Assembly: GCA_019359715.1 (NCBI GenBank)
Contig: JAHHGS010000120.1
Span: 1 to 34,827 of the forward strand
DNA from: Aphanocapsa sp. GSE-SYN-MK-11-07L
GTDB taxonomy: Bacteria; Cyanobacteriota; Cyanobacteriia; Thermosynechococcales; Thermosynechococcaceae
DNA length: 34,827 nt
Direction of reading: 5' to 3'
Shown: one piece after another, positions 18,848 through 32,272 of the stretch
How the letters are laid out: every line of letters begins with the position of its first letter
Position numbering within the stretch: position 1 is the first letter of the stretch
Position numbers and translations under genes: made by a program
Notes under the pieces: generated by a model
Database searches by the model: none
Told to the model about the DNA's origin: nothing
The model's input: only the letters and a program-made list of their open reading frames with translations

Positions 18848-20197
18848 ATGTCAAATCAATCCAAACGAGCGGGATTACCTATAGTCCAAGAATATGCAGC
18901 GGGCATTGATATTGGATCTCGGTTTCATGTGGTTGCTGTGCCGCCTGAAATGAGTTCTGAATCAGTTCAAACTTTTCAGGCGTTTACGTCGGATCTGCAT
19001 CGGATGGCTGATTGGTTAATCGAGACAGGCATAAAAACGGTGGCGATGGAGTCAACAGGTGTTTACTGGGTACCCGTCTTTGAAATTCTTGAGGATCGGG
19101 GACTTAATGTGATTCTCGTTAATGCACGAGAGGCCCGCACCGTCCCTGGACGCAAAACGGATGTCAATGATGCTCAATGGTTACAGCGCTTACACGCCTG
19201 TGGGCTATTGCGTGCGAGTTTTCGTCCTGGTCGCGACATTGCTGCTCTACGGGCCTACTTGCGACTACGTGAGCGACATTTGGACTATGCCGCTGCTCAT
19301 ATTCAGCACATGCAAAAGGCGCTCACTTTCATGAATATGCAACTTCAGAATGTCGTCAGCGACATTACAGGTGCAACGGGAATGAAAATCATCCGAGCGA
19401 TTGTCGCCGGAGAACGTGACCCAGCCAAATTAGCACAGTTGCGTGATGTGCGATGTCACGCCAGTATTGAGACAATTGAAGCGTCGCTGCGGGGAAATGA
19501 CCAACCTGAGCATGTATTTGCACTAACTCAGGCTCTTGCACTCTATGACTTCTATCAAGCGCGAATTGAGGAATGCGACATAGAGATCGAGCGTGCATTG
19601 GCAGCATTGAACAAAGAAAAATCAGTACCTGAAGAGCCTTTGCCGAAGATTCGTCGTCAAACGCGGCAGCCAAATGCCGTTAATTTCCATGTTCGAGCGT
19701 CTCTTTATCAGCTCATTGGGGCAGACCTGACTCAGATTCATGGGATTGGTCCCTATCTGGCCCTACGATTAATTTCTGAATGTGGAACCGATCTGAGTCG
19801 GTGGCCTACGGTCAAGCATTTCACATCGTGGCTGAGGCTTTCTCCCGGCAGTAAAAAATCAGGCGGCAAAGTCCTTTCTGCTCATACGGGCAAGACCACT
19901 AACCGAGTGACCGCGCACTTGCGACTCGCAGCAGTGACGGTTGGACGTACCAACACTGCCTTGGGTGCTTTCTACCGACGTCTGGCCGCACGAATTGGGA
20001 AGTCAAAGGCAGTGACAGCCACAGCACGTAAGATTGCGGTGCTCTTCTATAATGCGGTTCGTTATGGCATGACCTATGTAGACCCTGGTGCAGATCGATA
20101 TGAGAAGGAATACCGCGAGCGTGTGGTCAAGAACCTGCATCGCAAAGCTGCCGAGTTCGGGTTTACCCTTCAGCCGACTGGGGATTGTGTTTCTTAG
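18848..20197 (+). CDS. IS110-family transposase (DEDD recombinase)
   Basis: A 449-aa full-length transposase. The RuvC-like N-terminal domain has Asp21 (AGIDIGS), Glu68 (AMESTGVYW) and Asp105/Asp108 (GRKTDVNDAQWL). A helical linker follows, then the C-terminal Tnp domain with helix-hairpin-helix IHGIGPYLALRLISECG and the catalytic Ser338 in PGSKKSGGKV. All expected catalytic residues are present, so it may be active. It works as a recombinase guided by a bridge RNA in studied members. GAAGG ahead of the ATG is the likely ribosome-binding site; the same GAAGGCTAT string recurs right after the stop codon (20198-20206). Confidence 0.95.
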   Translation: MSNQSKRAGLPIVQEYAAGIDIGSRFHVVAVPPEMSSESVQTFQAFTSDLHRMADWLIETGIKTVAMESTGVYWVPVFEILEDRGLNVILVNAREARTVPGRKTDVNDAQWLQRLHACGLLRASFRPGRDIAALRAYLRLRERHLDYAAAHIQHMQKALTFMNMQLQNVVSDITGATGMKIIRAIVAGERDPAKLAQLRDVRCHASIETIEASLRGNDQPEHVFALTQALALYDFYQARIEECDIEIERALAALNKEKSVPEEPLPKIRRQTRQPNAVNFHVRASLYQLIGADLTQIHGIGPYLALRLISECGTDLSRWPTVKHFTSWLRLSPGSKKSGGKVLSAHTGKTTNRVTAHLRLAAVTVGRTNTALGAFYRRLAARIGKSKAVTATARKIAVLFYNAVRYGMTYVDPGADRYEKEYRERVVKNLHRKAAEFGFTLQPTGDCVS

Positions 20198-20403
20198 GAA
20201 GGCTATGAATATTGGGTGGATGAACACCTCAAAAGCAGAAATTGGAATCAAGAAAAATAGTCGATGTGATATCCGACAGCTAACAAGTTGATGAAGTAAA
20301 CAGTTGAGAGATCTTGGTGGGGGGTCGCTAAGGTTTTCTGCCATTACTTATCTTGGTCGTCATGTGGCGACTAGACCACAGTGTCAAATTAGTGGTTGGG
20401 TGT

Positions 20404-20691
20404 TTAGAGGGTGTTTGAAAAGTGTCTTGGGCGACGTTGCCACCGTGCAGATCCCCCCAACCCCCTTTTTTAAGATAGGGCTGATTCTCTTAGAAGAGCA
20501 AAGTTGCCTTAATCTGTTCAGGAGGTTCGCGTTTGAAGCCTAAACTCTTCGATCCCCCAACCCCCTTAAAAAGGGGGCTTCAGACTTCAAAATCCCCCTT
20601 TTTAAGGGGGATTTAGGGGGATCAAGGATTTTCAGATGTGTCCAATTTGACTTTTCAAACATCCTCTTAAGTTTTCAAACATCCTCTTAAG
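20404..20691. mobile_element. MITE-like palindromic element, composite copy
   Basis: Terminal inverted repeats are AGAGGGTGTTTGAAAAGT at the left (from 20406) and the complementary ACTTTTCAAACATCCTCT at the right (from 20650). The interior has large palindromes built from GATCCCCC, CCCCCTTTTTAAGGGGG and their complements (20450-20475 and 20551-20625), with a unique spacer of about 75 bp between them, which suggests one copy inserted in another. The right terminal 20 bp is duplicated head-to-tail (20652-20671 and 20672-20691). There is no transposase gene. Two relatives lie at 30528-30671 and 33102-33183. Confidence 0.75.
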
Positions 20692-20738
20692 AGAGAACTG
20701 TATTCCGCAAACAGCGGCCGGTGGCGGCGATCCCAACT

Positions 20739-20873
20739 TTAAAAGCTTACTTCTTCAAATTCAAAGGTCAGAAAGGCATCTTCGTGCATGAGCAGCAGAA
20801 TTGTGATGATTTTGGCAACGCGATCAACGCCACCGTCCGCTGGGTAAGTATTTACCTCCCATGACCTGTACAA
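20739..20873 (-). CDS. Possible 44-aa ORF or gene remnant
   Basis: A frame with TTG at 20873 ends with TAA at 20739 and reads ADGGVDRVAKIITILLL then MHEDAFLTFEFEEVSF. The composition looks protein-like, but it overlaps the end of the cyclotransferase gene in another frame and has no ribosome-binding site. It may be the 3' end of a lost gene. I recognise no family. Confidence 0.25.
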   Translation of the reverse strand: MYRSWEVNTYPADGGVDRVAKIITILLLMHEDAFLTFEFEEVSF

Positions 20874-21246
20874 ATTGCGATCGCATCAGGTAGACCCAAG
20901 CCAAGCCTAACGAGGTGCGATCGCGGCTAAAAACTTCGAGCTGCTGGCGATAGTACAAGTTGTCAGCCTTGCCCCGGCCAGGATCGTAGTCTTCGTAGTC
21001 ATCTAATTGGACTAAAATTTGCGGATTGGCAAAGGCTAAGACATACCCCTGCACCCAGCCTGGGCCGCTGGTCATGGCCGGATAGCCCGCCGGTAAGTCA
21101 TAGAGTTGGCCAGGGGCGATCGCCCGCCGCGTCTGAATAACTTGCCCAGCGCAAAACTGCTGATAGCCGCTCTGCCCTGGCATCAGAGTGCCGTAAACAA
21201 ATACCTGGAAGTCCTGGGACTTGAAAGAACCAGGTGAATTCCCCAC
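20824..21246 (-). CDS. Gamma-glutamylcyclotransferase-like (AIG2/GGCT) protein
   Basis: A 140-aa protein with the GGCT-like fold motif FVYGTLMPGQSGYQQF near the start, GQLYDLPAGYPAM, and LDDYEDYDPG, whose Glu in the (D/E)-x-x-E-G-like position is typical of the catalytic acid. The family opens gamma-glutamyl bonds to form 5-oxoproline, or acts on related amines; many bacterial members are uncharacterised. The start is GTG at 21246 with GAGG upstream. It is divergent from the toxin-antitoxin operon, and its promoter region adjoins that operon's palindromic operator. Confidence 0.8.
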   Translation of the reverse strand: MGNSPGSFKSQDFQVFVYGTLMPGQSGYQQFCAGQVIQTRRAIAPGQLYDLPAGYPAMTSGPGWVQGYVLAFANPQILVQLDDYEDYDPGRGKADNLYYRQQLEVFSRDRTSLGLAWVYLMRSQFVQVMGGKYLPSGRWR

Positions 21247-21275
21247 AAACCAGCCTCAAGCGGAAAATTAAACCA

Positions 21276-21291
21276 GTACAATTAATTGTAC
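21276..21291. promoter_or_regulatory. Perfect 16-bp palindrome, probable YefM-YoeB operator
   Basis: GTACAATTAATTGTAC is a perfect palindrome 20 bp before the antitoxin ATG. Its ends contain the TGTAC/GTACA motif known from the E. coli yefM operator (TGTACA hexamers). By analogy the antitoxin and the toxin-antitoxin complex would bind here and repress the operon. Confidence 0.65.
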
Positions 21292-21310
21292 GACTTACGA
21301 ATATTAGGAT

Positions 21311-21574
21311 ATGGAAATCATTCCAGCCAGTCAGGCCAGAGCCAAGTTATTTGGCTTAGTGGAACAGGTGAATTGCGACCACCTACCTCGGCTGATCACC
21401 AGTCGAAACGGAGATGCCGTATTACTCTCCAAGCAGGATTGGGAGAGTTTACAGGAAACCCTCTATTTGCAATCAGTCCCTGATTTGGTTTCATCAGTTC
21501 GAGCCGCTGAAGCAGCGGATGAATGGGTAACTGAAGCGGAGTTTTTGAGGGTGCTGGATGGACTGGAAGATTGA
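21311..21574 (+). CDS. Type II antitoxin, Phd/YefM family
   Basis: An 87-aa protein with the YefM/Phd N-terminal DNA-binding and dimerisation domain (MEIIPASQARAKLFGLVEQV, then PRLITSRNGDAVLLSKQDWE) and an acidic C-terminal tail that wraps the toxin. It would neutralise the YoeB-like toxin encoded next and repress its own operon through the palindrome upstream. AGG precedes the ATG, with no strong Shine-Dalgarno. Its last 17 bp overlap the toxin gene, a usual sign of translational coupling. Confidence 0.92.
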   Translation: MEIIPASQARAKLFGLVEQVNCDHLPRLITSRNGDAVLLSKQDWESLQETLYLQSVPDLVSSVRAAEAADEWVTEAEFLRVLDGLED

Positions 21575-21815
21575 ATTCAGCAAAAATGCCTTAAAAGATG
21601 CCGCCAAGCTGAAATCTGCCAACCTGGATCAAAATGTGAAGCAATTGCTAGCCGTTCTAAAGCAAAACCCGTTTGAGCCTCCCTCCGAAAAACTGAGCGG
21701 CAATTTGCAAGGCTACTATTCGCGCCGGATCAACATCAAACATCGGCTGGTATATGCAGTTGATCAAGCCACTCAAACCATTCGGGTTGTGTCTGTTTGG
21801 TCGCATTATGAGTAG
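21558..21815 (+). CDS. Type II toxin, YoeB/Txe family mRNA interferase
   Basis: An 85-aa RelE-fold toxin close to the length of E. coli YoeB (84). Conserved features are MDWKIEFSKNALKDAAKL, PFEPPSEKLSGNLQGYYSRR, then HRLVYAV at 62-68 and the C-terminal WSHY at 81-84. His83 falls at the position of the YoeB catalytic His, and Arg63 and Glu44 are candidates for the other catalytic residues. YoeB cuts mRNA in the ribosomal A site. All key residues appear present, so the toxin is probably functional. Confidence 0.93.
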   Translation: MDWKIEFSKNALKDAAKLKSANLDQNVKQLLAVLKQNPFEPPSEKLSGNLQGYYSRRINIKHRLVYAVDQATQTIRVVSVWSHYE

Positions 21816-21920
21816 CTGATCGGCTGCAATGTTTGGCTGGGGAATCGAGCCTGATTGGGTGCGATCGCTGCCACAATGATAAAAAGGTATTTAGCTTCAA
21901 GAACAATTAACCGAGTGGGC

Positions 21921-22640
21921 ATGACGACAACAGAAGACAAAAAAATTGACGATAAGGCAATTGTTGCCAACTATTTCAACAGCATTGGCTTTGAGCGCTG
22001 GCAGCGGATCTATGGCGATGGCGAAGTCAACAAAGTTCAGCAGGACATTCGGGTTGGGCATCAAAAAACGATTGATACCGTGCTGGCTTGGCTGAAGGCA
22101 GATGGCAATTTGCCCGGTCAATCCATTTGCGATGCGGGGTGCGGGGTGGGTAGCCTCAGCATTCCGCTGGCTGCGGCAGGAGCGCAGGTGTTTGCCAGCG
22201 ACCTGTCTGAAAAAATGGTCGGCGAAGCAAGTGAGCTGGCTAAAGCGGCACTGGGACAAGCAGAAAATCCCAAATTTATCGTTCAAGACCTAGAAGGTTT
22301 GAGCGGCACCTACCAGACTGTGATTTGCTTAGACGTGTTGATTCACTACCCAGAAGAAAAAGCCGCCGAGATGATTTCCCATTTGAGCAGCTTGGCCAGC
22401 GATCGCTTGATTCTGAGTTTTGCCCCCAAAACCCCCTGCTACAGCCTGCTCAAAAAAATTGGCGATTTCTTTCCTGGCCCCAGTAAGGCAACTCGCGCCT
22501 ACTTGCATAAAGAATCAAATGTTCGCCAAATTTTAACTAGCTGCGGCTGGCAGATTGAACGGACTTCGATGAGTAAAACCCGCTTCTACTTTTCCCGGAT
22601 TCTGGAGGCAGTCAAACCTGCTAATGACGCCAACAACTAG
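21921..22640 (+). CDS. chlM: Magnesium-protoporphyrin IX O-methyltransferase
   Basis: A 239-aa SAM-dependent methyltransferase with the ChlM/BchM signature: VANYFNSIGFERWQRIYGDG near the start, SAM-binding DAGCGVGSLSIPLA (about 71-84), VICLDVLIHYP, and LILSFAPKTP. It methylates the 13-propionate of Mg-protoporphyrin IX in chlorophyll synthesis, at the cytoplasmic face of the thylakoid. I chose the ATG at 21921 because the known N-terminus begins shortly before DDKAIVANYF; an upstream in-frame start at 21855 would add 22 basic residues. It is followed after 6 bp by a glycosyltransferase gene, so the two are probably cotranscribed. Confidence 0.93.
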   Translation: MTTTEDKKIDDKAIVANYFNSIGFERWQRIYGDGEVNKVQQDIRVGHQKTIDTVLAWLKADGNLPGQSICDAGCGVGSLSIPLAAAGAQVFASDLSEKMVGEASELAKAALGQAENPKFIVQDLEGLSGTYQTVICLDVLIHYPEEKAAEMISHLSSLASDRLILSFAPKTPCYSLLKKIGDFFPGPSKATRAYLHKESNVRQILTSCGWQIERTSMSKTRFYFSRILEAVKPANDANN

Positions 22641-22646
22641 ACAACA

Positions 22647-23780
22647 ATGATTGCTCTCGAAGTTCTGCTGCTGATTTTAATTGCTGGGTCTACCGTTTTT
22701 TACGGGGCTGCCGCTTGGTTCACCCATCGGTTCTTCGCTGCCCCCTTGAGTTTGCCCCCGGTTGAAAACTATCCACCGATTTCTCTGCTGGTGCCAACCT
22801 GCGGCTTAGATGCCGGAGCCTGGGAAAATTGGCTCTCCCTGTGTCAGCAAACCTATCCAAACTACGAAGTTTTATTTGGCATCGTTGACCCCCAAGATCC
22901 GGCTGTGCCGACGGTACAAGAGCTTGTGGCTAAGTTTCCCGATCGCGTCCGCCTGTATACCGACTTGCAGCCGCGTGGCATTAACCACAAAGACAGTAGC
23001 CTCAGCTACTTGCTGGCAGAAGCTAAGCATGAGCTGATTGTGTTTGTCGATAGTGATATTCGGGTAATTCCTGAGTATCTGCAAATTGTCACTGCTCCCT
23101 TGGCTGACCCTCAAGTTGGCATGGTGACGTGTGCTTATATTGGCTATGAACCGAAATTTTTGGGAGCGGCTCTGGCTTCGCTGGGGCGCTGCTGTGACTT
23201 TATTCCTGGGCTTTTGATTGCCCGCAACCTGGACAAAGGAGTCAAGTTGGCGATCGGCGTCACCATTGCGACTCGCAAGGCAACACTAGCGGACTTTGGC
23301 GGCTTGCACTTCAGCCGGATTGGCTCTGACTATAATCTGGGTAAGCGAGCCGCTCAAGCGGGCTACCAAGTCGTGCTATCTCACTACGTCCTCAACTCTG
23401 ATACTGGCGATGAAAGCCTTCGCCAGGTTTTCCAGCGAGAGCTGCGCTGGGCCAGAAGCATTCGGTTTAACCGCGGCTTGCAGTATTACACGATGGCTTT
23501 TTGCTACGGCCCGGTTTACTATTTACCGCTACTACTGGTGTCTGGATTTGCCAATTGGGCGATCGCGCTCTGTGTCGTCAATCTGGCGATCCGGTATGCT
23601 CAGTCCCTCGTTGTGATCAGAAGTATGGGCTGTCCGGGTCTGCTGCGCTGGCTCTGGACTTTACCCCTGCGTGACCTGCTCAGCTTTGCGGTTTGGGTTG
23701 TGGGTGCATTTGGCAAACGGGTTTACTGGCGGGGCAGATATTTAAAGATTCACGCTGACGGGCTGCTGACGCAAGAATAA
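22647..23780 (+). CDS. Membrane glycosyltransferase, ceramide glucosyltransferase-like (GT21)
   Basis: A 377-aa family 2/21-type transferase. An N-terminal transmembrane helix (about 2-24) precedes the catalytic domain, with PPISLLVPTCG, the metal-binding DSD at 135-137 (ELIVFVDSDIRV), GSDYNLGKRA, and RELRW at 264-268, which fits the (Q/R)xxRW motif. Two to three hydrophobic helices follow at about 280-350. The layout fits GT21 ceramide glucosyltransferases and the related hopanoid HpnI, so a lipid acceptor is likely, though which one is unknown. It sits 6 bp after chlM. Confidence 0.82.
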   Translation: MIALEVLLLILIAGSTVFYGAAAWFTHRFFAAPLSLPPVENYPPISLLVPTCGLDAGAWENWLSLCQQTYPNYEVLFGIVDPQDPAVPTVQELVAKFPDRVRLYTDLQPRGINHKDSSLSYLLAEAKHELIVFVDSDIRVIPEYLQIVTAPLADPQVGMVTCAYIGYEPKFLGAALASLGRCCDFIPGLLIARNLDKGVKLAIGVTIATRKATLADFGGLHFSRIGSDYNLGKRAAQAGYQVVLSHYVLNSDTGDESLRQVFQRELRWARSIRFNRGLQYYTMAFCYGPVYYLPLLLVSGFANWAIALCVVNLAIRYAQSLVVIRSMGCPGLLRWLWTLPLRDLLSFAVWVVGAFGKRVYWRGRYLKIHADGLLTQE

Positions 23781-23816
23781 TCCGTCTTCACTTTTATAGC
23801 GATAGCGATCAAAGTT

Positions 23817-24056
23817 ATGACAGTGCTGGTGAGATTTTTACCCGATGATATTGCGATCGCAGCCGAAGTGGGAGACTTGATCCTGGACGTTGCCGAACGA
23901 GCAGGCGTCTATATTCCAACCGGTTGCCTAATGGGTTCTTGCGGAGCCTGTGAAGCAGAGCTAGCCGAGAGTGGAGAAATTCGCTGCTGCATTACTTCTA
24001 TCCCACCGGGGCAATCTACCCTAACAATTAGCCTATTTTCTGACCCGACTTGGTAG
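23817..24056 (+). CDS. Small [2Fe-2S] ferredoxin-like protein
   Basis: A 79-aa protein with a plant-type ferredoxin beginning (VRFLPDDIAIAAEVGDLILD, then VAERAGVYIPTGC) and three cluster cysteines Cys37-x4-Cys42-x2-Cys45. The fourth cysteine would be Cys57 or Cys58 (GEIRCCITS), only 12-13 residues on instead of about 29, so it is a shortened member. It should carry one electron in the cytoplasm, if the cluster assembles. It starts 36 bp after the glycosyltransferase in the same direction; chlM, this transferase and this gene may form one transcript. Confidence 0.82.
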   Translation: MTVLVRFLPDDIAIAAEVGDLILDVAERAGVYIPTGCLMGSCGACEAELAESGEIRCCITSIPPGQSTLTISLFSDPTW

Positions 24057-24095
24057 TTGTTTGAGTACACGGACAGCGGGGATTATATAGTGAAC

Positions 24096-24854
24096 CTAGA
24101 GTAAGCCTTCGAGTTCTAGCTCCTCGATCGCCTGTAGCCCTCTTGGGTCGCCCAACTTTAGCAGGGCTGCTTTAGCATCTTCTTGCACGCCCAAATCAGG
24201 ATCCGATAGGGCCGTAATTAAAGCCGCGATCGCGGTTGCATAAACTTCTCCCAAGGGAATTTTTTGGCAGAGTTGCCCCAGCGCCCAAGCGCAATTGCTG
24301 CGGACGGCGGCGATCGGATCATCTGCTAAGGCCTCACCCACGGGCGCAATCGCCAGACTGACTGCTTCTAAATCGACTTCAGCCATTTGTCCTAAAGAAC
24401 TTGCTGCCCATAGCCGCACGGCTGAAATGTCGGTTCTGAGCGCGTCAATCAGGGGGTGAAGCGAGCGGCGATCGTGGCAGGTGCCCAAGGCCCAAACCAC
24501 GCCCTTTCGCACATAGCCATTCCAGTCCTGTTCAAGCTGTTGAATCAACGGCTCAACTGCGGATGAACTGGGGTTGCGCCCCAGGGCATAGGCGGCACTC
24601 ACCCGCACCAGTGGACACCCTTCTGCCAGCAGTCGAATTAAATACGGGATCGCTCGTTCATCTTGCAATTCACAAAAAGCCCGCGCCGCCAACATCCGCT
24701 CTGTCACGTCAGCCGACTCCAGCAGCGGCAGCATCTCCTCTGGATCAGGCCGCTCTGCTTCGGCTTCAGCCGACTCAACAGAAGCCAACTGATCCAAAGG
24801 ACTTCCTAGACTGGCGTCTGGGTCAATTAACCGCAGGTCATCTTCATCGTACAT
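24096..24854 (-). CDS. HEAT-repeat protein
   Basis: A 252-aa protein with an acidic N-terminus followed by about five HEAT/PBS-lyase-type repeats: ERMLAARAFCELQDERAIPY, then LVRVSAAYALG, YVRKGVVWALGTCHDRRSL, VRLWAASSLGQMA, VRSNCAWALGQLC and VQEDAKAALLKLGDPRGLQ. Such proteins serve as protein-binding scaffolds; a subgroup is bilin lyases for phycobiliproteins. Nothing here proves lyase activity and no phycobiliprotein gene is nearby. It ends 39 bp from the convergent ferredoxin-like gene. Confidence 0.85.
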   Translation of the reverse strand: MYDEDDLRLIDPDASLGSPLDQLASVESAEAEAERPDPEEMLPLLESADVTERMLAARAFCELQDERAIPYLIRLLAEGCPLVRVSAAYALGRNPSSSAVEPLIQQLEQDWNGYVRKGVVWALGTCHDRRSLHPLIDALRTDISAVRLWAASSLGQMAEVDLEAVSLAIAPVGEALADDPIAAVRSNCAWALGQLCQKIPLGEVYATAIAALITALSDPDLGVQEDAKAALLKLGDPRGLQAIEELELEGLL

Positions 24855-24931
24855 ACCAGTAACTTTACCGCACCTCTTGCGGCAGACAATCAGTGTCTCT
24901 AGAACTAAAGCTCAATCATCGTAACCCTCTG

Positions 24932-29703: not shown

Positions 29704-29932
29704 GTGATTCCAAATTTAGACTCCAATTGGTGCAAATTAGCGGGCAATAGTTGCTGGAGCAGGTTAGGAGTGTTACGAGAAAGTACAGGATACTACAAAC
29801 TCAAAACACTATGCTAGCCTGGAGCAGGAAAAGGTGCTAGGTAGCGCTGTTGCGGTCCAGATTCTACATGTCTGGCTGACACGCCAACCTTTGGTTTGGG
29901 CGTGTATCTCAGAGACTTAGTTCATTTTCTGC
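29704..29932. other. Non-coding stretch with hairpin upstream of tRNA-like cluster
   Basis: No protein gene is supported. A hairpin pairs ACACGCC (29879-29885) with GGCGTGT (29899-29905). GGTGCTAG at 29833-29840 is the inverse of CTAGCACC at 30237-30244, so a short inverted repeat brackets the tRNA-like cluster. A promoter for the cluster probably lies here but I could not define it. Confidence 0.4.
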
Positions 29933-29998
29933 CGGTGATTAGCTCAGTGGGAGAGCGCCCATCCTGGGAGGTCGTAGGTTCGATTCCTATATCACTGA
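29933..29998 (+). tRNA. tRNA-like unit with shortened anticodon arm
   Basis: Acceptor CGGTGAT pairs with ATCACTG (29991-29997) including one G-T. The D arm is GCTC/GAGC (29942-29945 and 29953-29956), and the T arm is GTAGG, TTCGATT loop, CCTAT (29974-29990). Between D and T arms there are only 17 nt instead of about 23, and no normal 5-bp anticodon stem forms; CCCA-TCC-TGGG can make a small hairpin. It is a degenerate or non-standard tRNA; the isotype cannot be assigned. Confidence 0.45.
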
Positions 29999-30005
29999 CC
30001 CAACT

Positions 30006-30080
30006 CGAAAGTTAGCTCAACGGAAGAGCGATCGATGTGTGATCGATATGCAGCAGGTTCGATTCCTGTACTTTCCACCA
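30006..30080 (+). tRNA. tRNA-like gene, anticodon uncertain (TGT or GTG)
   Basis: All four arms form: acceptor CGAAAGT with ACTTTCC (6 of 7, the first pair C:C mismatched), D arm GCTC/GAGC, anticodon stem ATCGA/TCGAT, T arm GCAGG/CCTGT with loop TTCGATT, and an encoded CCA at 30078-30080. The anticodon loop is TGTGTGA with G where the universal U33 belongs. Strict counting gives anticodon TGT (Thr); shifting one base would give GTG (His). It may be a functional array tRNA or a decaying one. Confidence 0.55.
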
Positions 30081-30086
30081 ACCCCA

Positions 30087-30187
30087 GTCCTGGGTCTGGA
30101 CACCAGTTTGAGGAACTGGCTCGGCTTTCCAAGCTGATCTTCATGGTACGGGAGCAATCCCAAGACGGTTCGAGTCCGTTTCTGTTT
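30087..30187 (+). tRNA. Composite tRNA-like segment with two anticodon arms (GAG and TCC)
   Basis: A D arm GTCC/GGAC (30087-30101) is followed at canonical spacing by anticodon arm CCAGT-TTGAGGA-ACTGG (30103-30119; anticodon GAG, Leu). Directly after is a second arm TCGGC-TTTCCAA-GCTGA (30121-30137; anticodon TCC, Gly). Only one T arm follows, GACGG-TTCGAGT-CCGTT (30164-30180). CCAG/CTGG of the first anticodon arm could instead serve as the D stem of the Gly unit. No pairing acceptor stem was found. It looks like two fused tRNA genes. Confidence 0.4.
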
Positions 30188-30191
30188 AGCC

Positions 30192-30527
30192 CCTGCAATC
30201 CAGCCTTCTGCTGGAGGTTGCTACCTAGTAGCGCCTCTAGCACCCGTGAAAGGCTTGTGCGATCGCTGTTCGGTTTGGGCTTGAGTAGGCTCTAGCAGTT
30301 GTCGTCAGCGGGATTCCAACCGGAATTCAGCGGCGGTAACTGCCCGACCTATCGGCAGCGGATGAATCTGAATCGGGCGGCCCACGGGTGACTCGGTCTA
30401 GAAAGTCTGCTGCTGCATCCAGCTCACAGCCCGGCGATCGCCCGCACCGTAACGGGGAATGCTGGATTTGTCTGGGGTTTTGCTTGTAGCACTTGTAGTA
30501 TGTGTAGTATAATTATTGTCAGCTCGC
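30192..30527. other. Non-coding GC-rich stretch, no gene seen
   Basis: No protein gene is supported. TCCAG-CCTTCTG-CTGGA (30199-30215) has the shape of another anticodon arm but lacks U33. GGATTCC/GGAATTC and CTGCC/GGCAG hairpins follow. Three 9-bp units beginning TTGTAG or GTGTAG run from 30484 to 30510, just before the second MITE-like copy. Confidence 0.35.
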
Positions 30528-30671
30528 TTAAAGGATGTTTAAAAAGTTAGCAGCTTTGCCCCTGATCCCCCTTAAAAAGGGGGACTTTGAAGTCTGAAGC
30601 CCCCTTTTTAAGGGGGTTGGGGGGATTTGTAAGATTGCAGCGTAGCTATAAACACTTTAAAGACCCTCTTA
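30528..30671. mobile_element. MITE-like palindromic element, second copy
   Basis: About 144 bp with inverted ends (AAGGATGTTTAAAAAGT at the left from 30531; ACTTTAAAGACCCTCTTA at the right, ending at 30671). The interior has CCCCCTTAAAAAGGGGG and CCCCCTTTTTAAGGGGG around a short GACTTTGAAGTCTGAAG centre. It is the reverse complement of the inner part of the copy at 20404-20691. It separates the tRNA-like cluster from the slipin gene and may affect that gene's promoter. Confidence 0.75.
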
Positions 30672-30742: not shown

Positions 30743-32272
30743 ATGTGGAAAACGTTCTATATTAAATCGCATGAGCGCGGTATCTTGTACTACCGGGGCG
30801 ATTTTCGGCGTATTTTGCGCCCCGGTCACTATCGACGCCCCTGGTTCGGTCAATGGCAAATCGTCCCTCACGATTTAAGTCAGCCAGAAGCCAAAATCGA
30901 CAATCTAGAGCTATTGTTACAGACGCATCTCAGCGGATTGCAAGCCCACTTGCAGATTGTTCAGACCGCCTTTGGCGAGACGGCGCTCGTCTGTCTGGGG
31001 CAGCGTTGGGTGAGTGTTGCTCCCAACCAGTTGCGGGCATTTTGGCGTGGTTTTGTAGACGTTCAAATCCACCGCTTTAACTTGGAGGACAGCCTGGAAT
31101 TAGCCAGCGAGTTTGTGACTCAAATTAGAGGCATGACCATTGAGGGTCTGAAAAAGGTGCAATTATCCGAGTCAGAAATTGGCTTACTGTACGTGCAAGA
31201 TAACTTCCTGCGTCCACTGGGGCCAGGGGAGTATGCTTTTTGGACATTTAGTCGCAAAGTTGAAGTTCGGGTGTTCAGCCAAGTCAACCCAAAGCCTGAA
31301 TTTCCATCCGAAGAAGTGCTGATTGAGCAGCATCCTGAGTTTGTTGCCACTCACTGCCTGTCGGTGCAGTTGGATAGTGATACCGTTGCGATCGTCCGCT
31401 ATAAAGGCAAAGTGATCGCGATTTTGCCGCCTTGCAGCCGCAAGCTGTTTTGGCAAGGGGTTGAAATTGCAGAAATTAACGTTGTGGCCCAACCTAAACT
31501 GCCCCAGCGATTGGTAGCTGAGTTGGTGTCTGGGTTAACAGAAACCCTTTCGCTCAGTTACGAGGCTCTGCATCTGCTGGAAGTGCCTGCCCAGCATGTC
31601 GGCCTGTTATATCTGGATCAGGTCTTACAAGAAACTCTCCCGCCTGGGCTACATGCCTGGTGGATATTTGGGCGCTCATTCAAAACCGAAGCGATTGACC
31701 TCCGCTTGCAAATGCTAGAAATCTCTGGACAAGAAATTTTGTCGAGAGATAAGGTGCCGTTGCGATTAAACTTGACGGCAAGTTTTCGAGTGGTTAATCC
31801 AATCTTGGCCAAAAGTGCGCTGGCTGATATTCCCGGATTCCTCTACAAAGAATTACAGCTTGGCTTACGGTCTGCGGTTGGAACGCGATCGCTGGATACT
31901 CTGCTAGAAGATAAAGGTGCGATTGATGCTAGTGTTGCTGATTACATTCGCCCCAAGGTATCAGACTACGGGATTAAAATTGAATCCGTCGGAGTCAAAG
32001 ATATCATTCTACCCGGCGAAATCAAGGCAATCTTGAGCAAAGTTGTTGAGGCAGAGAAATCAGCCCAAGCCAATGTAGTGCGTCGTCGAGAAGAAACGGC
32101 TGCCACGCGCAGTATGCTAAACACAGCCAAGGTGATGGAAGACAATCCGGTGGCACTGCGCCTGAAGGAACTGGAAGTGCTGGAGCGAATTGCCGAGAAG
32201 ATTGACCACATCAACGTCAACGGCGGACTCGAAAGCATTTTGACCGATTTGATTCAGATCAAATCACAGTGA
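30743..32272 (+). CDS. SPFH/slipin-family protein with five N-terminal repeats
   Basis: A 509-aa protein. The C-terminal part (about 320-480) is an SPFH/prohibitin-like domain (LSRDKVPLRLNLTASFRVVN, then LLEDKGAIDASVADYI, DYGIKIESVGVKDIILPGEI) with a short helical tail. The N-terminal 310 residues hold five repeats of about 70 aa, each with a core like GLLYxxxxxxxxLxPGxYxxW; cores start near 10, 77, 141, 210 and 281. No transmembrane helix is seen, unlike classic stomatins. SPFH proteins form membrane-associated oligomers and scaffold other proteins. The function of this form is unknown. The start ATG at 30743 has no clear ribosome-binding site. Confidence 0.85.
   Translation: MWKTFYIKSHERGILYYRGDFRRILRPGHYRRPWFGQWQIVPHDLSQPEAKIDNLELLLQTHLSGLQAHLQIVQTAFGETALVCLGQRWVSVAPNQLRAFWRGFVDVQIHRFNLEDSLELASEFVTQIRGMTIEGLKKVQLSESEIGLLYVQDNFLRPLGPGEYAFWTFSRKVEVRVFSQVNPKPEFPSEEVLIEQHPEFVATHCLSVQLDSDTVAIVRYKGKVIAILPPCSRKLFWQGVEIAEINVVAQPKLPQRLVAELVSGLTETLSLSYEALHLLEVPAQHVGLLYLDQVLQETLPPGLHAWWIFGRSFKTEAIDLRLQMLEISGQEILSRDKVPLRLNLTASFRVVNPILAKSALADIPGFLYKELQLGLRSAVGTRSLDTLLEDKGAIDASVADYIRPKVSDYGIKIESVGVKDIILPGEIKAILSKVVEAEKSAQANVVRRREETAATRSMLNTAKVMEDNPVALRLKELEVLERIAEKIDHINVNGGLESILTDLIQIKSQ

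What the first reader, a model, noticed from the sequence alone, without database searches (positions are those of the whole stretch)
29933..30187. Cluster of non-standard tRNA-like units in a 1-kb non-coding gap
At least three tandem units share D-arm GCTC/GAGC or GTCC/GGAC and TTCGA T-arms, but each deviates: a missing 6 nt in the anticodon region, G33 instead of U33 with a C:C first pair, and a fusion with two anticodon arms (GAG, TCC) sharing one T arm. Cyanobacterial tRNA arrays with odd members are known; this looks like a short or decaying one, or tRNAs with changed roles. An 8-bp inverted repeat (29833-29840, 30237-30244) brackets it.
Basis: partly seen in the sequence, partly recalled or inferred. 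Interest (0 to 1): 0.7.

Follow-up and report, generated by a model that had tools for sequence, protein, structure and literature searches.

The report
tRNA-mimic RNA of an RNA-repair locus
The odd tRNA-like units are not dying tRNA genes: they are parts of one conserved RNA, about 470 letters long, that in cyanobacteria sits almost always just upstream of a ring-forming (SPFH/slipin) protein gene and imitates tRNAs without decoding, probably as the RNA arm of a response to damaged tRNAs and blocked protein synthesis.

Summary
Observation largely right, interpretation half right. Units 1 (29933-29998) and 2 (30006-30077) score 49.8 and 50.3 bits as tRNA (cut-off 29). Both have homologues directly upstream of a slipin/Band_7 gene (here 30743-32272) in 72 of 80 named cyanobacterial loci; most exceptions are contigs cut short. 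The cloverleafs are held by compensatory changes (97.3% of cells paired; 158 double-change cells versus 37.5 in shuffles). Decoding features are not kept: 32 different anticodon triplets, irregular unit-1 loops, and a 1:72 mismatch in 65 of 77 unit-2-like copies against 1 of 30 normal tRNAs. So it is a maintained, non-decoding tRNA mimic, not a decaying array. Related slipins in proteobacteria stand beside the same kind of RNA with rtcR, rtcB and rlaP. Acaryochloris adds a kinase and a Thg1-like gene. The slipin promoter carries the TrcR translational-stress site in 49 of 72 loci. This is a cyanobacterial, multi-unit variant of the SPFH/Band-7 plus tRNA-like-RNA repair systems predicted in 2016. 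The mechanism (scaffold or decoy) is inferred. The 8-bp inverted repeat is not conserved.

The parts
29810..29815 (+). Predicted -10 box (TATGCT) of the RNA's own promoter
   Evidence: TRTGYTA is conserved at this place in relatives; prediction only
29790..29797 (-). TGTAGTAT, the reported TrcR operator core, upstream of the RNA
   Evidence: 3 copies in 34.8 kb, all flanking the RNA; 0 of 100 shuffles reach 3. Only 3 RNA promoters among relatives have one
29854..29877 (+). 5' domain hairpin 1
   Evidence: Compensatory changes; with hairpin 2, 97.5% of cells paired against 91.6% shuffled, 34 double-change cells against 8.1
29878..29908 (+). 5' domain hairpin 2
29933..29998 (+). tRNA-like unit 1 (cloverleaf with a shortened anticodon arm)
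   Evidence: Rfam tRNA 49.8 bits; covariation
30006..30077 (+). tRNA-like unit 2 (TGT in anticodon position, G33, C1:C72 mismatch; genomic CCA follows at 30078-30080)
   Evidence: Rfam tRNA 50.3 bits; covariation; mismatch and CCA shared by most relatives
30082..30182 (+). Unit 3: hairpin 30103-30119, lineage-specific insert hairpin about 30122-30137, GGGA-GCAA-TCCC hairpin 30150-30161, T-arm 30165-30179; no acceptor stem
   Evidence: Alignments and RNAalifold; weak tRNA-Sec match
30183..30287 (+). Conserved 3' part of the RNA; end not defined, no intrinsic terminator found
   Evidence: Conservation profile; terminator scan
30494..30510 (+). Two TGTAGTAT copies, the second overlapping a TATAAT -10, in the slipin promoter
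   Evidence: the same place holds the motif in 49 of 72 loci
30743..32272 (+). Slipin / SPFH (Band_7) protein, 509 aa: five beta repeats, SPFH domain, long C-terminal helix
   Evidence: Pfam Band_7 96.6 bits; AlphaFold2 model pLDDT 84.8; Foldseek to stomatin and major vault protein

Best explanation
The cluster is one structured non-coding RNA of about 470 nt: a 5' two-hairpin domain, two tRNA-like cloverleafs, an acceptor-less third tRNA-like domain and a conserved 3' part. It belongs with the slipin gene downstream and is the cognate tRNA-like RNA of a cyanobacterial SPFH/Band-7 RNA-repair or translational-stress system. Shown here: conservation, covariation, linkage to slipin, loss of decoding features, a TrcR-type site before slipin, and homologous loci with rtcB/rlaP or kinase/Thg1-like genes. 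Inferred: the RNA is transcribed from its own promoter. When translation is blocked TrcR lets go and slipin is made, as reported for Anabaena alr0740. Slipin assembles into a ring or cage that holds the RNA, and the tRNA-like modules present a tRNA surface that either tethers tRNA-handling repair enzymes (RtcB in trans here; kinase and Thg1-like protein in Acaryochloris) or soaks up tRNA-attacking nucleases.
For: Two tRNA hits above cut-off. Homologous RNA upstream of slipin in 72 of 80 named loci and in 20 of 21 near-full-length slipin genes of a class-wide sample (my count; the exception lies on another contig). Cloverleaf covariation: 27 pairs with double changes against 15.1, score 0.43 against 0.18, 0 of 500 shuffles; 5' domain likewise. 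Non-decoding: 32 triplets, U33 lost in 27 of 129 units, unit-1 lengths irregular, 1:72 unpaired in 65 of 77 unit-2-like copies against 1 of 30 normal tRNAs of this genome. TrcR motif: 55 of 69 copies in 742 kb lie in the RNA-slipin gap. Anabaena alr0739-alr0740 (slipin) and rtcB are strongly derepressed without TrcR (PMC10272220). Slipin is followed by a kinase and a Thg1-like gene in Acaryochloris. Burkholderia: rtcR, tRNA-like RNA, slipin, rtcB, rlaP; two tandem tRNA-like units in Photobacterium; the cyanobacterial RNA profile finds these RNAs (E 4e-24 to 2e-7).
Against: No transcript, processing or binding data were available. No RNA-repair gene lies next to slipin in this window; Thg1 and RlaP are absent from the genome; rtcB is on another contig. 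CTCATAA (Met-type) loops are still the commonest state and about four fifths of units keep U33, so decoding in some relatives is not excluded. Three loci with upstream sequence lack the RNA (L070, L117, L132).
Confidence: 0.72

Rival explanations
1. Extra functional tRNAs that take part in decoding under stress, like the inducible Anabaena trn operon.
For: Good cloverleafs, encoded CCA in most copies, CAU-type loops commonest in relatives; a TrcR site at the slipin promoter and one upstream of the RNA here; a real inducible-type tRNA array with rtcB exists in this genome.
Against: Anticodon triplets differ between orthologues (32 kinds), unit 1 often lacks a 7-nt loop, unit 2 keeps an unpaired 1:72, unit 3 has no acceptor; strict linkage to slipin.
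Confidence: 0.1
2. A decaying tRNA array left by horizontal transfer.
For: Irregular anticodon arms in the window; one relative (L042) has lost the unit-3 T-arm and the slipin gene.
Against: Compensatory evolution in every stem and conserved order across families; neutral decay would not keep this.
Confidence: 0.04
3. A decoy for anticodon nucleases: the units imitate tRNAs so that toxins bind or cut them, the variable loops reflecting an arms race, and slipin concentrates the decoys.
For: Stems kept while loops vary between orthologues; patchy distribution (24 of 390 genomes); translational-stress-type promoter motif.
Against: No toxin tested; loop diversity may be drift after loss of decoding; in Nostoc many loops are the same CTCATAA. 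For the comparable YrlA no cleavage by the damage-induced nuclease was detected (PMC7790460).
Confidence: 0.2
4. The RNA is the non-coding RNA of a retron-like element, the reverse transcriptase having been lost in most lineages.
For: In eight loci a retron-type RT (PADLOC RT_XIII) lies between two copies of the RNA or directly beside one, and remnants occur in others.
Against: 22 type-XIII RT loci elsewhere in the class have no such RNA nearby; this genome has no match to that RT family; most slipin-RNA loci have no RT.
Confidence: 0.03

Closest known systems
SPFH/Band-7 RNA-repair systems with a cognate tRNA-like RNA (Burroughs and Aravind 2016, NAR 44:8525; full text not held. Its abstract is known to me from memory; [quoted passage not shown]
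   Same: Band_7 protein with tRNA-like RNA just upstream; homologous proteobacterial loci carry rtcR, rtcB and rlaP
   Different: In cyanobacteria the unit is usually RNA plus slipin alone, rtcB is elsewhere, a TrcR-type motif replaces RtcR, and the RNA has two cloverleafs plus an acceptor-less third domain
Bacterial Y RNA YrlA (Rfam RF02553) with Ro60/Rsr
   Same: Non-coding RNA with a tRNA-like domain in RNA-repair operons
   Different: Only 17 bits here (cut-off 69); protein partner is an SPFH protein; several complete cloverleafs
Anabaena trn operon / cyanobacterial long tRNA arrays (PMC10272220)
   Same: Tandem tRNA-like genes, TrcR-type operator nearby
   Different: Those encode many functional tRNAs; here two to three non-decoding units tied to slipin. 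A true array with rtcB is on contig C22 of the same genome
Eukaryotic vault (major vault protein and vault RNA)
   Same: SPFH protein with beta repeats and a long cap helix plus a small RNA; Foldseek E 8.9e-14 over 582 columns
   Different: N-terminal repeats alone match MVP only weakly; vault RNAs are not cloverleafs; cage assembly not tested
Thg1-polynucleotide kinase RNA-repair pairs (PMC2904730)
   Same: Kinase plus Thg1-like genes follow slipin in Acaryochloris
   Different: Absent from the window and most relatives

Membership tests
SPFH/Band-7 plus tRNA-like RNA repair system | SPFH/Band-7 protein of this subfamily | tested here: met
   Pfam Band_7 96.6 bits; 38-45% identity to proteobacterial slipins, some next to rtc genes
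SPFH/Band-7 plus tRNA-like RNA repair system | tRNA-like non-coding RNA adjacent to the slipin gene | tested here: met
   homologous to RNAs upstream of proteobacterial slipins
SPFH/Band-7 plus tRNA-like RNA repair system | RNA-repair enzymes linked to the slipin in at least some members | tested here: met
   Kinase and Thg1-like in Acaryochloris; RtcB and RlaP in Burkholderia, RlaP in Citrobacter
SPFH/Band-7 plus tRNA-like RNA repair system | RtcB in the same operon in this genome (variable in the family: Citrobacter has RlaP but no rtcB in the stretch read) | tested here: not met
   rtcB is on contig C22, downstream of a tRNA array
SPFH/Band-7 plus tRNA-like RNA repair system | RNA binds the SPFH protein and serves RNA repair | not testable with these tools
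   Needs biochemistry
Decoding tRNA genes | 7-nt anticodon loop with U33 | tested here: not met
   Unit 1 loop shortened, unit 2 G33
Decoding tRNA genes | Cloverleaf with acceptor, D, anticodon and T stems | tested here: met
   Units 1 and 2; unit 3 lacks an acceptor
Cyanobacterial long tRNA array | Many tandem tRNA genes of different specificity | tested here: not met
   Two tRNA-like units above cut-off
YrlA Y RNA | Matches the Rfam YrlA model | tested here: not met
   17.0 bits, cut-off 69
YrlA Y RNA | Encoded beside Ro60 (TROVE) | not tested
   The Band_7 gene, not Ro60, lies next to it; Ro60 was not searched for genome-wide
Retron type XIII | Linked type XIII reverse transcriptase | tested here: not met
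   No PDLC02956 match in this genome
Vault protein (MVP) | MVP-type repeats plus SPFH shoulder plus cap helix | tested here: inconclusive
   Whole model matches MVP; repeats alone only weakly

The most novel reading that the evidence does not exclude
A stress-induced SPFH cage loaded with a multi-unit tRNA-mimic RNA whose stems are conserved but whose anticodon loops diversify acts as a decoy and repair station against tRNA-cutting toxins: a prokaryotic counterpart of a vault RNP devoted to tRNA damage.
Probability: 0.17. Interest if true: 0.8.

Novelty: new variant of a known kind. Interest (0 to 1): 0.55.

Why it matters
The RNA has no family of its own that Rfam 15 recognises here and is read by annotation programs as stray tRNAs, although it is conserved across several cyanobacterial families and homologous to RNAs in proteobacterial RNA-repair operons. 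It links three things that can be tested together in one laboratory strain (Anabaena PCC 7120): the TrcR translational-stress regulon, which already includes a slipin and rtcB; an SPFH protein of unknown role; and a tRNA mimic. If the RNA works with slipin, it gives a handle on what the Band-7/MVP-type proteins of RNA-repair systems do.

Tried and rejected
8-bp inverted repeat as a closing helix: no better in cognate than in shuffled partners. Unit 3 as a fusion of two tRNAs: the second hairpin is a local insert. Retron type XIII as the owner of the RNA: 22 RT loci carry no such RNA. Y RNA: far below cut-off. Initiator-tRNA origin of unit 2: 1:72 mismatch, CCA and CAU loop suggested it, but overall similarity to the genome's tRNA-fMet is low; only the complete third unit of some Nostoc-type loci is clearly fMet-like. 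Slipin in phages: no match. A motif scan of viral contigs gave 17 hits, none of which carries the RNA or slipin. A 17-nt motif scan of 292 genomes found only this one, so the exact motif is too strict to map the family. The 2016 paper and the 2021 trn-operon paper were not held. N-terminal repeats of slipin as MVP repeats: only weak matches.

Full report
What is in the sequence. Rfam's tRNA model finds two units above its cut-off, 29933-29998 (49.8 bits) and 30006-30077 (50.3 bits); ARAGORN sees only the second. Unit 1 has complete acceptor, D and T stems, but the stretch between D and T stems is 17 nt instead of the usual 23. Unit 2 has C:C at 1:72, G33 and a genomic CCA at 30078-30080. The third region has a T-arm but no acceptor stem, and its best match is a sub-threshold tRNA-Sec.

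Relatives. A BLAST search of 58 related genomes found the same order of units in six genomes of the same family and two of other families. The gene that follows in most of them is the homologue of the window's 30743-32272, a slipin/SPFH protein (Pfam Band_7). A scan of named genomes with the slipin alignment gave 80 loci, all cyanobacterial. A profile of the RNA built from nine sequences hits 72 of these loci, nearly always just upstream of slipin. Five of the eight misses are contigs that break off; L070, L117 and L132 truly lack it within reach. In an even sample of 390 genomes of the class, 24 have the slipin. Of those with a near-full-length slipin gene, 20 of 21 have the RNA next to it (my count), and the exception (G007) has its RNA at the end of another contig. 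One genome, G006, has a damaged RNA without the unit-3 T-arm and no slipin, which fits loss of both together.

Structure. RNAalifold on 44 sequences gives two 5' hairpins, two cloverleafs, and several hairpins in unit 3. On 28 sequences the cloverleaf pair of units 1 and 2 has 97.3% of cells paired (84.5% in shuffles), 27 pairs with double changes (15.1) and 158 double-change cells (37.5), with 0 of 500 shuffles reaching any of these; slid versions pair in 33-42%. The two 5' hairpins also pass (97.5% against 91.6%, 34 double-change cells against 8.1). The structure was derived from the same sequences, so part of the excess over the slid versions is expected; the double changes are the stronger evidence. 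Conservation spans about 29810 to 30287, so the RNA is about 470 nt; its ends are not known and no intrinsic terminator was found.

Not decoding. Among 129 units with a near-canonical arm length, 32 different triplets stand in the anticodon position (CAT 58) and U33 is kept in 102. Unit 1 often has loops of irregular length. In unit-2-like copies the 1:72 pair is unpaired in 65 of 77 and CCA is encoded in 59 of 77; in 30 ordinary tRNAs of this genome the numbers are 1 of 30 and 1 of 30, the one being the initiator tRNA. These counts are over loci and are not corrected for relatedness. Overall similarity of unit 2 to the initiator is low; the complete third unit of L054, L075 and L120 is clearly fMet-like.

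Regulation. TGTAGTAT, a site protected by the translational-stress repressor TrcR in the Anabaena trn promoter (PMC10272220), occurs three times in the 34.8-kb window, all flanking this RNA. In the 72 loci it lies between RNA and slipin in 49; 55 of 69 copies in 742 kb fall in that 34 kb. In Anabaena the slipin gene alr0740 and its neighbour alr0739 rise 42- and 72-fold without TrcR, and rtcB 77-fold. In the present genome rtcB lies on contig C22 behind an array of at least nine tRNA genes whose promoter carries the same motif over its -10 box. Nearby is a small ribbon-helix-helix-like gene, with the motif in its own promoter and divergent from an HNH gene, as trcR is in Anabaena. That it is TrcR is an inference from fold, size and arrangement.

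Partners. In Acaryochloris the slipin is followed by a polynucleotide-kinase-like gene and a Thg1-like gene, a pair that has been proposed to repair RNA (PMC2904730). Slipins 38-45% identical occur in proteobacteria. In Burkholderia stagnalis the order is rtcR, tRNA-like RNA, slipin, rtcB, rlaP; Citrobacter has rtcR, slipin, rlaP; Photobacterium has two tandem tRNA-like units. The cyanobacterial RNA profile finds the Photobacterium and Burkholderia RNAs (E 4e-24, 2e-8, 2e-7). [quoted passage not shown] the abstract of that paper, as I remember it, speaks of SPFH/Band-7 modules with a novel tRNA-like molecule. The paper itself could not be read here.

The protein. AlphaFold2 gives five beta repeats, an SPFH domain and a long C-terminal helix (pLDDT 84.8). 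Foldseek finds stomatins (E 2e-14) and major vault protein (8.9e-14 over 582 columns), with low TM-scores over the whole chain as expected for a long repeat protein. The repeats alone match MVP only weakly, so kinship with vaults is open.

How it probably works. Shown: a maintained tRNA-mimic RNA linked to slipin and to a translational-stress-type promoter motif. Inferred: slipin made under stress assembles and holds the RNA, whose modules either recruit tRNA-handling enzymes or act as decoys for tRNA-cutting enzymes. I give the identity (conserved non-decoding RNA of a slipin RNA-repair or stress system) about 0.8 and the scaffold or tether role about 0.5; the decoy role is the main rival.

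Membership and novelty. It meets the features I could test for the SPFH/Band-7 plus tRNA-like-RNA systems, except that rtcB is not in the operon here, which varies within the family. It fails the tests for decoding tRNA, long tRNA array, YrlA and retron. I therefore call it a new variant of a known kind, with the caveat that the 2016 paper may already show the cyanobacterial form.

Noticed in passing
L054 3089-4144, L079 3318-4445, L082 2827-4065, L084 3197-4249, L087 2978-4072, L094 1491-2891, L096 3048-4121, L101 3011-4096: A retron-type reverse transcriptase (best PADLOC model RT_XIII; NAxxH and VTG motifs) sits between two copies of the tRNA-like RNA, or directly beside one, in Nostoc-type loci; the copy next to it often lacks unit 1. 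Remnants of the RT lie at L072, L083, L090 and L103.
   Followed up: partly
L052 3077-7882 (G000:C22 about 20076-24881): Same genome: probable TrcR gene, HNH gene, array of at least nine tRNA genes (some further degenerate) and rtcB in a row, with TGTAGTAT in the trcR-like and array promoters.
   Followed up: partly
L075 4366-4436, L120 4368-4438, L054 2614-2686: The third unit is a complete tRNA-like unit clearly related to initiator tRNA-fMet (1:72 mismatch, GAGC/GCTC D stem) instead of the acceptor-less form.
   Followed up: partly
L056 3239-4495: A TnpB (IS605-type) gene lies between the two RNA matches, upstream of slipin.
   Followed up: no
L051 9755-10837: In G006, which lacks slipin, a damaged copy of the RNA lies next to a tyrosine-recombinase (integron-integrase-like) gene.
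   Followed up: no
window 30557-30625: Strong inverted repeat CCCCCTTAAAAAGGGGG...CCCCCTTTTTAAGGGGG between the TrcR-type sites and slipin; looks like a repeat element, weak chance-level miRNA model matches.
   Followed up: no
L098 4398-4979: A YdeI/OmdA-family gene lies between the TrcR site and slipin in Nostoc parmelioides; it may correspond to Anabaena alr0739.
   Followed up: no
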